IMG/VR virus record: IMGVR_UViG_3300047553_000365 | Location: 1 to 64,000 of that record | Source of the DNA: a virus | DNA: 64,000 nucleotides | Reading direction: 5' to 3' (one strand) | Shown here: positions 1,329-51,086 of the stretch, one piece after another | How positions within the stretch are numbered: the first letter of the stretch is position 1 | Layout of the letters: each line of letters opens with the position of its first letter | Translations under genes and position numbers: made by a program | The notes under the pieces: model-generated | Databases searched by the model: none | What the model saw: only the letters and a program-made list of their open reading frames with translations | What the model was told of the DNA's origin: nothing

Positions 1329-1865
1329 ATGAAAACTTTTATAGAATATTGGTTAATGAGTGAAAATGCAGCACCTAGGTCTTATGCGTGTTTAATGCTA
1401 GACTGTGAAGAATTACTACCAAAAATTAAAGAAATTCAAAGTAATATTAAGGAATCTGATATATATAATGAAGAAGGTCATGGATTAGAAAAAGAACCAC
1501 ACATTACGGTTCTTTATGGGATTCATGAACAATCCCCACAATTAGTGAAGGATCAAATGGATCTATACCCTGTAACATATACTCTTACTGGATTATCATT
1601 ATTTGAAAATGAAGAATATGATGTGTTAAAATGTTCTGTAGATTCTGAATCTCTACATGCTCTTAATAAACAAGCTAGAGAATTAGAACACACTAATAAT
1701 TACCCAGATTATATACCACATCTCACAATAGCATATTTAAATCCCGGAGAAGGAAAGAAATATTTAAAAATGAAATCACCTATATTTGACAAAGAATTAA
1801 AGTCCGATAGATTCATTTTCTCTGATAAAGACGGAAATCAAACAAAATGGAAAGTTGAAGGATGA
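1329..1865 (+). CDS. 2H phosphoesterase (2'-5' RNA ligase-like)
   Basis: 178 residues. Two H-x-T-x motifs, HITVLYG near residue 58 and HLTIAYL near residue 132, are the paired catalytic motifs of the 2H phosphoesterase fold (LigT, cyclic phosphodiesterases). Family members act on 2'-5' linkages or 2',3'-cyclic phosphates, for example at RNA ends. The gene follows tRNA-Tyr and precedes an S4-domain protein, so a tRNA-end role is plausible but inferred. The N terminus MKTFIEYW resembles the shared leader peptide seen on many proteins here and may mark it for packaging in the capsid. Confidence 0.8.
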   Translation: MKTFIEYWLMSENAAPRSYACLMLDCEELLPKIKEIQSNIKESDIYNEEGHGLEKEPHITVLYGIHEQSPQLVKDQMDLYPVTYTLTGLSLFENEEYDVLKCSVDSESLHALNKQARELEHTNNYPDYIPHLTIAYLNPGEGKKYLKMKSPIFDKELKSDRFIFSDKDGNQTKWKVEG

Positions 1866-2041
1866 AAGTATATTATAAAGCAGTAGATCTTATTCAATGG
1901 GTTTGGAAACATACCTTTGGAATTGAGAAGTCGAAAACACAAATCAAAAGAGAACTTGAACAGGGTTCCGTCAAACTAAACAATCGAAAAATCAATGTCG
2001 ATGACGTTTTTATGTTTGACAAAAACGAAAAGTGTGATTAA
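1862..2041 (+). CDS. Small S4-type RNA-binding domain protein
   Basis: 59 residues, start overlapping the stop of the 2H phosphoesterase gene (ATGA). The segment KSKTQIKRELEQGSVKLNN resembles the S4 RNA-binding motif of tyrosyl-tRNA synthetase tails and pseudouridine synthases. A free-standing S4 domain next to a 2H phosphoesterase and tRNA-Tyr suggests a structured-RNA ligand. Function is inferred from fold only. Confidence 0.6.
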   Translation: MKVYYKAVDLIQWVWKHTFGIEKSKTQIKRELEQGSVKLNNRKINVDDVFMFDKNEKCD

Positions 2042-2049
2042 ATCATTAC

Positions 2050-2316
2050 ATGATTACATTTGAACGTCAGATTGTGAATTTCGAACCTAAATGGTTAGTA
2101 AAACTTAACGATAAAGAATTCGGAAGATTAACAGCAGATCATATCAATGACTGCATTAATGATCGATATTTGGAAAGTGTTGAAGGTGTAAGGCTGAAAG
2201 ATGAATACCTTTTGGTCTTGAAAGAATTGATGGGTGATCCAAATTTTGATGAAGAATTAACACAAAAGTTTGACGAATTGATAAATACTATTAAAGAATC
2301 TATGCAAAAACAATAG
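2050..2316 (+). CDS. Hypothetical protein, possible amber-readthrough partner
   Basis: 88 residues, acidic and probably helical; not recognised. It ends in TAG at 2314-2316. The codons after this TAG stay open in the same frame into the next ORF, so readthrough by the CTA-anticodon tRNA at 2757 would give one 219-residue protein. Whether that happens is unknown. Confidence 0.7.
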   Translation: MITFERQIVNFEPKWLVKLNDKEFGRLTADHINDCINDRYLESVEGVRLKDEYLLVLKELMGDPNFDEELTQKFDELINTIKESMQKQ

Positions 2317-2364
2317 GTAGCGACTGCCGAAACAGGCGCAAGAGACGGTGCATTCCTTAGTGGA

Positions 2365-2709
2365 TTGCGTGTAAGAGTAAAGGAACTAGCACAGGAAGCT
2401 AGATATATTCGACTAGAAGAAAGTCGAGTAAAGAAGGGGGGTAAGATGAATGTAAACCCAAGGTCAAAGGATTTCTTTGAACTTAACGCTCATCGAAGGT
2501 TCCATGTAAGACCAGCAGCAAGGGCTGCACAATTGGCTTACGGGTTTCTAAAAGGAATCCCCTATAAGAAAATAGAGTCTAAGACCTATACTACTGCGTT
2601 TGATATGCAGTATATTAAAAAAGAGGTTAAGAGACTGGCCACCAAATTCGGTAGATTACCATATGGTAAGAACTACGATGAAGAAGTAGAAAGGTGGTTT
2701 CAAGAATAA
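2365..2709 (+). CDS. Hypothetical phage protein (LAxEAR / LAYGFLKG type)
   Basis: Contains LRVRVKELAQEARYIRLEE followed by HRRFHVRPAARAAQLAYGFL, a pattern I associate with small phage proteins of unknown function. The first ATG is at 2446 behind a strong AAGGGGGG, but the conserved-looking N-terminal part lies upstream of it, so TTG at 2365 or entry by TAG readthrough from 2050-2316 fits better. 114 residues from TTG, 87 from ATG. Confidence 0.65.
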   Translation: MRVRVKELAQEARYIRLEESRVKKGGKMNVNPRSKDFFELNAHRRFHVRPAARAAQLAYGFLKGIPYKKIESKTYTTAFDMQYIKKEVKRLATKFGRLPYGKNYDEEVERWFQE

Positions 2710-2712
2710 CAG

Positions 2713-2740
2713 TTGACAATGTTCAATAAAATGGTATGCT
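2713..2740 (+). promoter_or_regulatory. Sigma70-type promoter
   Basis: TTGACA at 2713, 16-base spacer, TATGCT at 2735. It lies 17 bases upstream of the CTA-anticodon tRNA and could drive it with the HNH gene behind it. Confidence 0.55.
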
Positions 2741-2756
2741 GAAAAGTATACCAAAT

Positions 2757-2828
2757 GCAATGTTCGTCTAACGGCTAAGACAGGAAACTCTAAATCTCTC
2801 AATGCGGGTTCGATTCCCACACATTGCA
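2757..2828 (+). tRNA. tRNA with CTA anticodon (candidate amber reader)
   Basis: Acceptor GCAATGT/ACATTGC is a perfect 7 bp; the D stem is GTCT/AGAC and the T loop TTCGATT. With U33 conserved, the loop CTCTAAA gives anticodon CTA, which reads UAG. The anticodon stem GGAAA/TCTCT has a G-U pair and an A-C mismatch, and the T stem has one C-A mismatch, so the gene may be weak or decayed. CCA is not fully encoded (ACC). Confidence 0.65.
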
Positions 2829-50957: not shown

Positions 50958-51086
50958 TGGCATGGGTGGGAATCGAACCCACACGCCCTAAACGGGCAAC
51001 GGATTTTGACGATTAATATAATATTGTTTCAACTATATTAATCGGTTTAAAAAGTCCGTAGCGTCTACCAATTCCGCCACCATGCC
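50958..51086 (-). tRNA. tRNA-Leu with a 44-base anticodon-loop insertion
   Basis: Acceptor GGCATGG/CCATGCC, Leu-type D arm (GGCGGAATTGGTAGACGC), class II variable arm GCCCGTTTAGGGC and T arm GTGGG-TTCGATT-CCCAC are all intact. The anticodon stem ACGGA/TCCGT is split by an insertion (about 51009-51052) containing an 11-bp hairpin CGATTAATATA/TATATTAATCG. Removal after U33 gives CAA, removal after U34 gives TAA; both are Leu. No group I core is visible. Confidence 0.8.

What the first reader, a model, noticed from the sequence alone, without database searches (positions are those of the whole stretch)
2050..2828. Candidate amber-reading tRNA beside an in-frame TAG junction
The tRNA at 2757 has anticodon CTA. 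Just upstream, the ORF ending in TAG at 2314 continues in frame without a stop into the next ORF, whose conserved-looking N terminus lies before any ATG. Suppression would fuse the two. TAG is otherwise used as a stop here (for example the helicase and thg1-like genes), so full recoding is unlikely; regulated readthrough is possible.
Basis: partly seen in the sequence, partly recalled or inferred. Interest (0 to 1): 0.72.

Follow-up and report, generated by a model that had tools for sequence, protein, structure and literature searches.

The report
Amber-gated phage gene with own tRNA
A phage gene begins with four codons and then a stop codon that its intact close relatives keep, and beside it the phage carries a transfer RNA able to read that stop as an amino acid, so the protein is probably made only when that transfer RNA is present.

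Summary
The gene starts at ATG 2302, overlapping the end of an unrelated ORF, with TAG as codon 5 (2314-2316). Ten phage records with an intact copy (window included) share ATG-3 codons-TAG-GTR, then a covarying 7-bp hairpin with CCNNAA loop, and keep the frame into the conserved protein. A tRNA with anticodon CTA follows within 28-74 nt in 9 of the 10; the tenth contig ends first. Two records with a broken gene lack it. TAG is otherwise a stop (2.7-7.4% of long ORFs in six records). A second family, without detectable similarity, in Klebsiella, Acinetobacter, Pseudomonas, Alishewanella and Synechococcus phages shows the same design: amber within codons 3-7 in 17 of 19 loci read, tRNA-CTA nearby in 16 of those 17. 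Best reading: a natural suppressor-tRNA gate on small phage proteins. Suppression itself, the amino acid, the hairpin's role and the proteins' functions are not shown. Counter-evidence: one amber phage without a detected tRNA-CTA, and a start-like codon after the TAG in family 1. Two papers, seen in passages, could not identify targets of phage suppressor tRNAs.

The parts
2302..2709 (+). Amber-gated gene: ATG 2302, three codons, TAG, then 130 codons and stop; 135 residues if the TAG is read
   Evidence: same architecture in 9 other records with an intact copy; 8 of 8 loci, found without a condition on the TAG, have it
2314..2316 (+). In-frame TAG, codon 5
   Evidence: in 12 of 12 records, exactly 9 nt after the ATG (3 of the 12 were found by a pattern that required it)
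2320..2339 (+). Hairpin 1: 7-bp stem (GCGACTG/CAGGCGC, one A-G mismatch here), hexaloop CCGAAA, starting 3 nt after the TAG
   Evidence: 96.4% of 84 cells paired, 5 of 7 pairs with changes on both sides, covariation score reached by 0 of 500 shuffles
2350..2368 (+). Possible hairpin 2 (GCATTCC-N5-GGATTGC), weaker evidence
   Evidence: predicted in the consensus; compensatory changes almost only in L031
2365..2367 (+). TTG proposed as alternative start; probably an internal Leu codon
   Evidence: TTG or ATG in 9 of 9 sequences (window included), but CTG in L031 and ATA in the broken L030
2757..2828 (+). tRNA with anticodon CTA (amber suppressor candidate), 48 nt after the gene's stop codon
2050..2316 (+). 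Upstream ORF whose last codons overlap the ATG of the gene in the same frame; not part of the gene
   Evidence: not found next to the gene in the relatives read

Best explanation
A phage gene with a built-in amber gate. Translation starts at ATG 2302 and meets UAG at codon 5. With ordinary host tRNAs, release ends synthesis after four residues. When the phage's own tRNA-CUA, encoded just downstream on the same strand, is made, processed and charged, it decodes the UAG and the 135-residue, predicted helical protein is produced. The conserved hairpin starting 3 nt after the UAG probably biases the contest between release factor and tRNA at this one codon. Shown by comparison: conserved amber position, conserved frame, hairpin covariation, linkage of intact gene and tRNA. 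Inferred: suppression itself, co-transcription, the hairpin's role, and the purpose (a feed-forward gate that keeps the protein off until the phage tRNA is functional, or a sensor of it).
For: Amber at codon 5 in 12 of 12 records carrying the element; 8 of 8 loci were found through peptides downstream of the TAG only. tRNA-CTA starting 28-74 nt after the end of the coding match in 9 of 10 records with an intact gene; the tenth contig ends 32 nt past it. Both records with a broken gene lack a tRNA-CTA: none in the 166-kb record G006, none in 40.0 of 40.5 kb of G005. Frame kept: 16, 17 or 18 codons from TAG to the [LM]RV codon in 9 sequences. Hairpin covariation; the element occurs once in each of six records. 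No other conserved in-frame TAG recognised in six records (candidates judged partly by eye). The tRNA-CTA share acceptor G1-C72, C2-G71, A73 in 7 of 9 against 8 of 173 other tRNAs of these records and loci (not corrected for ancestry). A second family without profile similarity to the first has the same design: 17 of 19 loci read have an amber within codons 3-7, and 16 of those 17 a tRNA-CTA in the locus. In six Acinetobacter members the first 18 codons after the TAG differ 34/16/130 times at codon positions 1/2/3 and the first internal start is codon 25, so that stretch is under selection as protein. Homologs without amber in L112 (16.7-kb contig), Mx1 and NCTB come with no tRNA-CTA in those records.
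Against: No expression data. Slickus01 has the family 2 amber (codon 6) but no tRNA-CTA by ARAGORN at default settings in its 141.6-kb record. BUCT-ZZ01 has a family 1 homolog without amber and yet a tRNA-CTA, which its family 2 amber gene may explain. In family 1 the last 8 codons before the [LM]RV codon show no third-position excess (79/61/88 differences), so coding there rests on frame, residues and 3-nt indels. A TTG or ATG stands at the [LM]RV codon in 9 of 9 sequences. In single-sequence folds hairpin 1 is in the best structure of 8 of 10 sequences, not of the window or L009. The window's tRNA has non-standard pairs in its anticodon and T stems. Near the two tRNA-Sup of phage XacN1 I saw no clear early-amber gene. 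One search that looked for recoded genes recovered this gene in only 2 of 5 records with an intact copy, so other early ambers could be missed; one search recovered 5 of 5.
Confidence: 0.78

Rival explanations
1. Internal initiation: the protein starts at TTG 2365 (ATG in some relatives); ATG-x3-TAG is a regulatory leader peptide and the hairpins are translational control elements.
For: TTG or ATG at this codon in 9 of 9 sequences; a possible second hairpin around it; no third-position excess in the codons just before it.
Against: CTG in L031 and ATA in L030; no SD seen by eye before it; residues, frame and 3-nt indels upstream of it conserved; it does not explain the adjacent tRNA-CTA; in the six Acinetobacter family 2 members 24 codons precede the first internal start, the first 18 of them under purifying selection.
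Confidence: 0.12
2. Same suppression, other purpose: the UAG is a sensor in negative feedback. Readthrough measures suppressor-tRNA or RF1 activity and the protein limits the tRNA or its use, as the in-frame UGA of prfB senses RF2 (analogy recalled). This rivals only the purpose part of the best explanation.
For: Gene and tRNA adjacent; RF-1-domain gene beside family 2 in KARL-1 and AbTZA1.
Against: No function known for either protein; no PDB sequence match; no fold match at E <= 0.001 for family 1.
Confidence: 0.25
3. Readthrough fuses ORF 2050-2316 to the next ORF.
For: They are in one frame here.
Against: In the relatives read, only short stretches of unrelated sequence precede the ATG in that frame (judged by eye).
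Confidence: 0.02
4. Programmed bypass of the UAG (T4 gene 60 type) instead of suppression.
For: UAG next to a hairpin.
Against: By eye on the alignment, no matching take-off and landing codon is kept in all members (for example L001, L011); the frame across the supposed gap is kept; bypass needs no tRNA-CUA.
Confidence: 0.03
5. A special residue (pyrrolysine or another) is inserted through a SECIS-like hairpin.
For: Hairpin just after the stop codon; dedicated tRNA with a shared acceptor end.
Against: No comparable hairpin in six family 2 members, and there the amber lies at variable distance from the first Cys; no synthetase gene was searched for.
Confidence: 0.04

Closest known systems
Stop-codon recoded phages (code 15, TAG as Gln; crAss-like and Lak phages)
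   Same: Phage tRNA-CUA, readthrough of UAG, proposed timing role (PMC10879173, passages; PMC9523058, start of abstract in a search listing; Borges 2022 only as an entry in a reference list)
   Different: There many genes carry in-frame TAG (general picture from those texts and recall); here TAG remains a stop and I found one conserved amber gene per genome, near its start
Synthetic suppressor-tRNA feed-forward leak dampener (PMC7969014, abstract)
   Same: A suppressor tRNA must be made before a gene with a nonsense codon is translated
   Different: Engineered; here natural, linked in the phage genome, in family 1 with a hairpin after the UAG
Phages with a suppressor tRNA of unknown target (XacN1 PMC5852040; Summit PMC9022506; passages)
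   Same: tRNA-CUA in a standard-code phage
   Different: Those papers report that no target gene could be identified; here a candidate target lies beside the tRNA
prfB in-frame UGA; SECIS element; T4 gene 60 bypass (all recalled)
   Same: Stop codon early in a gene or next to an RNA hairpin as a control point
   Different: Different codon, factor and outcome; no frameshift, no known special amino acid, no bypass signature seen

Membership tests
Code-15 phage recoding | TAG read as sense in many genes, rarely used as a stop | tested here: not met
   TAG ends 2.7-7.4% of long ORFs in six records and only this gene was recognised with a conserved in-frame TAG
Code-15 phage recoding | Phage-encoded tRNA-CUA | tested here: met
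Pyrrolysine insertion | PylRS and PylBCD genes with tRNA-Pyl | not tested
   ARAGORN's label tRNA-Pyl reflects the anticodon (recalled); no search for pyl genes was made
SECIS-like recoding element | Conserved hairpin just downstream of the recoded stop | tested here: met
   family 1 only; not seen in six family 2 members
SECIS-like recoding element | Hairpin recruits a special elongation factor | not testable with these tools
   needs biochemistry
T4 gene 60 bypass | Matched take-off and landing codons | tested here: not met
   read by eye on the alignment; not kept in L001 and L011
Suppressor-tRNA gate (works like) | In-frame amber conserved together with a linked tRNA-CUA | tested here: met
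   family 1: 9 of 10 intact, the tenth not assessable; family 2: 16 of 17 amber loci read, Slickus01 the exception
Suppressor-tRNA gate (works like) | Protein made only with the tRNA | not testable with these tools
   needs reporter or proteomics

The most novel reading that the evidence does not exclude
Phages with the standard genetic code have more than once evolved dedicated amber-gated genes: a small protein whose first few codons include a conserved UAG and whose synthesis is licensed by a phage suppressor tRNA encoded nearby, in one lineage with a dedicated RNA hairpin. This would be a natural translational switch and a missing target of orphan phage suppressor tRNAs.
Probability: 0.6. 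Interest if true: 0.93.

Novelty: new variant of a known kind. Interest (0 to 1): 0.86.

Why it matters
Suppressor tRNAs occur in phages with an ordinary genetic code, and published analyses of two such phages could not find their targets. Here are two candidate target families with conserved early ambers near such tRNAs, one of them in cultured phages, so the question becomes testable at the bench. Gene callers miss or truncate these genes: the PHROG that matches family 2 is an 80-position profile, and in KARL-1 and AbTZA1 the annotated start lies 24 codons after the amber. A natural amber gate would also be a ready part for synthetic control circuits.

Tried and rejected
Fusion of ORF 2050-2316: rejected, not conserved. 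Full recoding: rejected. Other conserved ambers in six records: one search kept 13 of 223 candidates after dropping antisense shadows, this gene among them in 2 of the 5 records with an intact copy; one search listed several dozen conserved post-TAG stretches, this gene among them in 5 of 5; the rest I judged, by eye, to be antisense shadows or extensions upstream of an ATG. Frameshift: not needed, ATG and downstream protein are in one frame. Bypass: no conserved codon match by eye. Special origin of the tRNA-CTA: rejected, isoacceptors of these phages in general diverge about as much. Protein function: no PHROG for the window member at E <= 1 and one weak PHROG hit (0.041) in 1 of 9 family members; no Pfam above cut-off; no PDB sequence match at E <= 1; model of mean pLDDT 72.9, helical, no Foldseek match at E <= 0.001. 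Bacterial genomes: none of 159 pattern stretches encodes a family 1 relative. XacN1: no clear early-amber gene in 30-45 kb around its tRNA-Sup, plus strand, by eye on 10 rows. Family 2 DNA pattern in viral contigs: no match. The codon-position count includes one mis-hit (L149) and is not used.

Full report
What is there. The window is part of a 138,655-base virus record; ARAGORN finds 25 tRNAs in the window. At 2757-2828 lies a tRNA with anticodon CTA. Upstream, TAG at 2314-2316 is followed in frame by 130 open codons to 2706: VATAETGARDGAFLSGLRVRVKELAQEARYIRLEE... The first in-frame start-like codon after the TAG is TTG 2365.

Relatives decide the anatomy. Two relatives in viral contigs align from the first residue after the TAG, and a profile found 8 loci (L010 and L012 are the contigs of L001 and L002). 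These searches used peptides downstream of the TAG. All 8 have ATG-NNN-NNN-NNN-TAG-GTR at the same place. What precedes the ATG is unrelated by eye, so the fusion ORF is a local accident of frame. A pattern scan of viral contigs for the element (ATG and TAG required) gave 32 stretches: 11 are this gene (6 or 7 of 7 pairs) and add L016, L030 and L031; the other 21 look like chance (2-6 pairs, frames of 0-57 codons, no tRNA-CTA). With the window, 12 records carry the element: 10 with an intact gene (window, L006, L007, L008, L009, L010, L011, L012, L013, L031) and 2 broken (L016: frame ends after 65 codons, TAA stops in the rest; L030: 31 codons).

tRNA linkage. A tRNA-CTA begins 28-74 nt after the end of the coding match in 9 of the 10 intact records. 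In L008 the contig ends 32 nt past the match. The two broken records have none: G006 (166,137 bases) has 17 tRNAs, none CTA; 40.0 of 40.5 kb of G005 have 16, none CTA. The tRNA-CTA bodies are diverse (mean pairwise identity 0.61 over 45 pairs, BUCT-ZZ01 included), but other isoacceptors of these phages diverge about as much. The acceptor end G1-C72, C2-G71, A73 is shared by 7 of 9 tRNA-CTA against 8 of 173 others (Fisher p 2e-7, uncorrected for ancestry), which hints at one kept charging identity; the amino acid is unknown.

RNA element. On an ungapped alignment of 12 sequences, a 7-bp stem starting 3 nt after the TAG pairs in 96.4% of 84 cells, 5 of 7 pairs have changes on both sides, and no slid register comes near. 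The loop is CCNNAA. In six records UAG plus this hairpin (6 or more of 7 pairs) occurs 8 times, 6 of them at this gene. A second hairpin around the TTG/ATG codon is predicted, with compensatory change almost only in L031. Against: the window's copy has an A-G mismatch; in single-sequence folds hairpin 1 is in the best structure of 8 of 10, not of the window or L009, and the window's segment folds no better than shuffles.

Coding through the TAG. The distance from TAG to the [LM]RV codon is 16-18 codons in 9 sequences, with whole-codon indels. The codon there is TTG or ATG in these 9, which favours a rival start, but CTG in L031 and ATA in the broken L030. The last 8 codons before it show no third-position excess (79/61/88), so in family 1 the coding case rests on frame, residues and indels. 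In six records TAG ends 3-14 of 111-225 long ORFs. No other gene with a conserved in-frame TAG was recognised: one search recovers this gene in 5 of 5 records with an intact copy, only in 2 of 5, and the remaining candidates were judged by eye.

A second family. The isolate search for family 1 found two distant homologs without amber: Phage NCTB (no tRNA found) and Synechococcus phage BUCT-ZZ01, which does have a tRNA-CTA. Next to the latter homolog stands another gene with an early amber, MGSDGS*INEC. Its family (phrog_29342) shows no profile similarity to family 1. Ambers are in Klebsiella KP13-26, phi1_175008 and KP2025 (MS*TNC), Acinetobacter KARL-1, Acj9, vB_AciJM_313, AbTZA1 and AB-Navy71 (MKH*) and ZZ1 (MNK*), Pseudomonas Astolliot and Milchi (MKE*, MNE*), Alishewanella Slickus01 (MKRLK*) and four viral contigs found without a condition on the TAG (L147-L150). 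Of 19 loci read (14 from the phage collection, 5 viral contigs), 17 have the amber; 16 of these 17 have tRNA-CTA within the fetched 3-6 kb. The exception is Slickus01, with no tRNA-CTA by ARAGORN in 141.6 kb at default settings; a much relaxed setting gives hundreds of doubtful hits and decides nothing. The two without amber, L112 (MKTKFCSCK, a 16.7-kb contig) and Myxococcus Mx1 (start unclear), have no tRNA-CTA in their records. tblastn lists 51 and 69 matching records; of the phage-collection loci read, 6 are Acinetobacter phages, and most matching records were not read. In those six the first 18 codons after the TAG differ 34/16/130 times at positions 1/2/3, and the first internal start is codon 25: this stretch is under selection as protein although no usual start precedes it after the TAG. 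Several have SD-like sequence before the ATG upstream of the TAG (by eye). No comparable hairpin was seen in the six. Family 2 gave no match better than E 0.85 in the six family 1 records.

How it most likely works. The tRNA-CUA reads the UAG; without it only a short peptide is made. Gene and tRNA lie on the same strand in the loci read, so one transcript may carry both; the protein would then follow the tRNA in time and be silent where the tRNA is not made, processed or charged. The hairpin in family 1 may favour decoding over release. A sensor or feedback role is a live alternative; the RF-1-domain gene beside family 2 in KARL-1 and AbTZA1 is suggestive only. Protein function is unknown: family 1 is predicted helical without a fold match at E <= 0.001.

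Prior work. I saw passages of PMC5852040 (XacN1: in silico readthrough of 18 amber stops found no target), PMC9022506 (Summit: purpose unknown), PMC8504454 (RsoM2USA, which instead suggests several potential target genes because UAG is abundant) and PMC10879173 (theta ribozymes and recoding), and the abstract of PMC7969014 (synthetic feed-forward loop). Seven searches of the held library (capped listings, judged by title and start of abstract) showed nothing that describes early-amber genes next to phage suppressor tRNAs; most subscription papers and bioRxiv preprints are missing from it, so this is not proof of novelty. In XacN1 I saw no clear case near its tRNA-Sup at 30-45 kb, so the design need not explain all such tRNAs.

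Noticed in passing
window 50958-51086 (-): Rfam tRNA match with 47 nt not shown in the anticodon-loop region and a long variable arm, not listed by ARAGORN; possibly a tRNA with a small insert or intron.
   Followed up: no
window and whole record G000, tRNAs: No tRNA-Glu found in the 138.7-kb record; 8 relatives carry tRNA-Glu-TTC, G003 and G006 do not.
   Followed up: no
window 1862-2038 (+): Small protein with weak similarity to the C-terminal domain of tyrosyl-tRNA synthetase, below the Pfam cut-off.
   Followed up: no
window 1329-1862 (+): 2'-5' RNA ligase / anti-CBASS Acb1-like protein above the Pfam cut-offs; an annotated RNA ligase also lies near family 2 in KARL-1, Acj9, AbTZA1 and Milchi.
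   Followed up: no
L103:1790-2026, L109:1904-2140: RF-1-domain protein near the family 2 amber gene and tRNA-CTA in Acinetobacter phages (annotation; Pfam match of the L103 copy above cut-off).
   Followed up: partly
L101:1465-1560 (Myxococcus phage Mx1): Family 2 homolog whose conserved frame has no usual start before the conserved part; an ATG with a nearby TAG lies in another frame.
   Followed up: no
L005:2852-2890: Short degenerate copy of the family 2 start (MGGDAS*IN...) beside the tRNA-CTA of BUCT-ZZ01.
   Followed up: no
window 2277-2301 and the same place in relatives: TAAATA box within 25 nt upstream of the ATG in 7 of 9 family 1 sequences, resembling a T4 late promoter (resemblance recalled); 32 such boxes on the + strand of the window.
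   Followed up: no
L112 contig (G012) 4186-4260: ARAGORN tRNA with ochre-type anticodon TTA in the contig whose family 2 gene has no amber.
   Followed up: no
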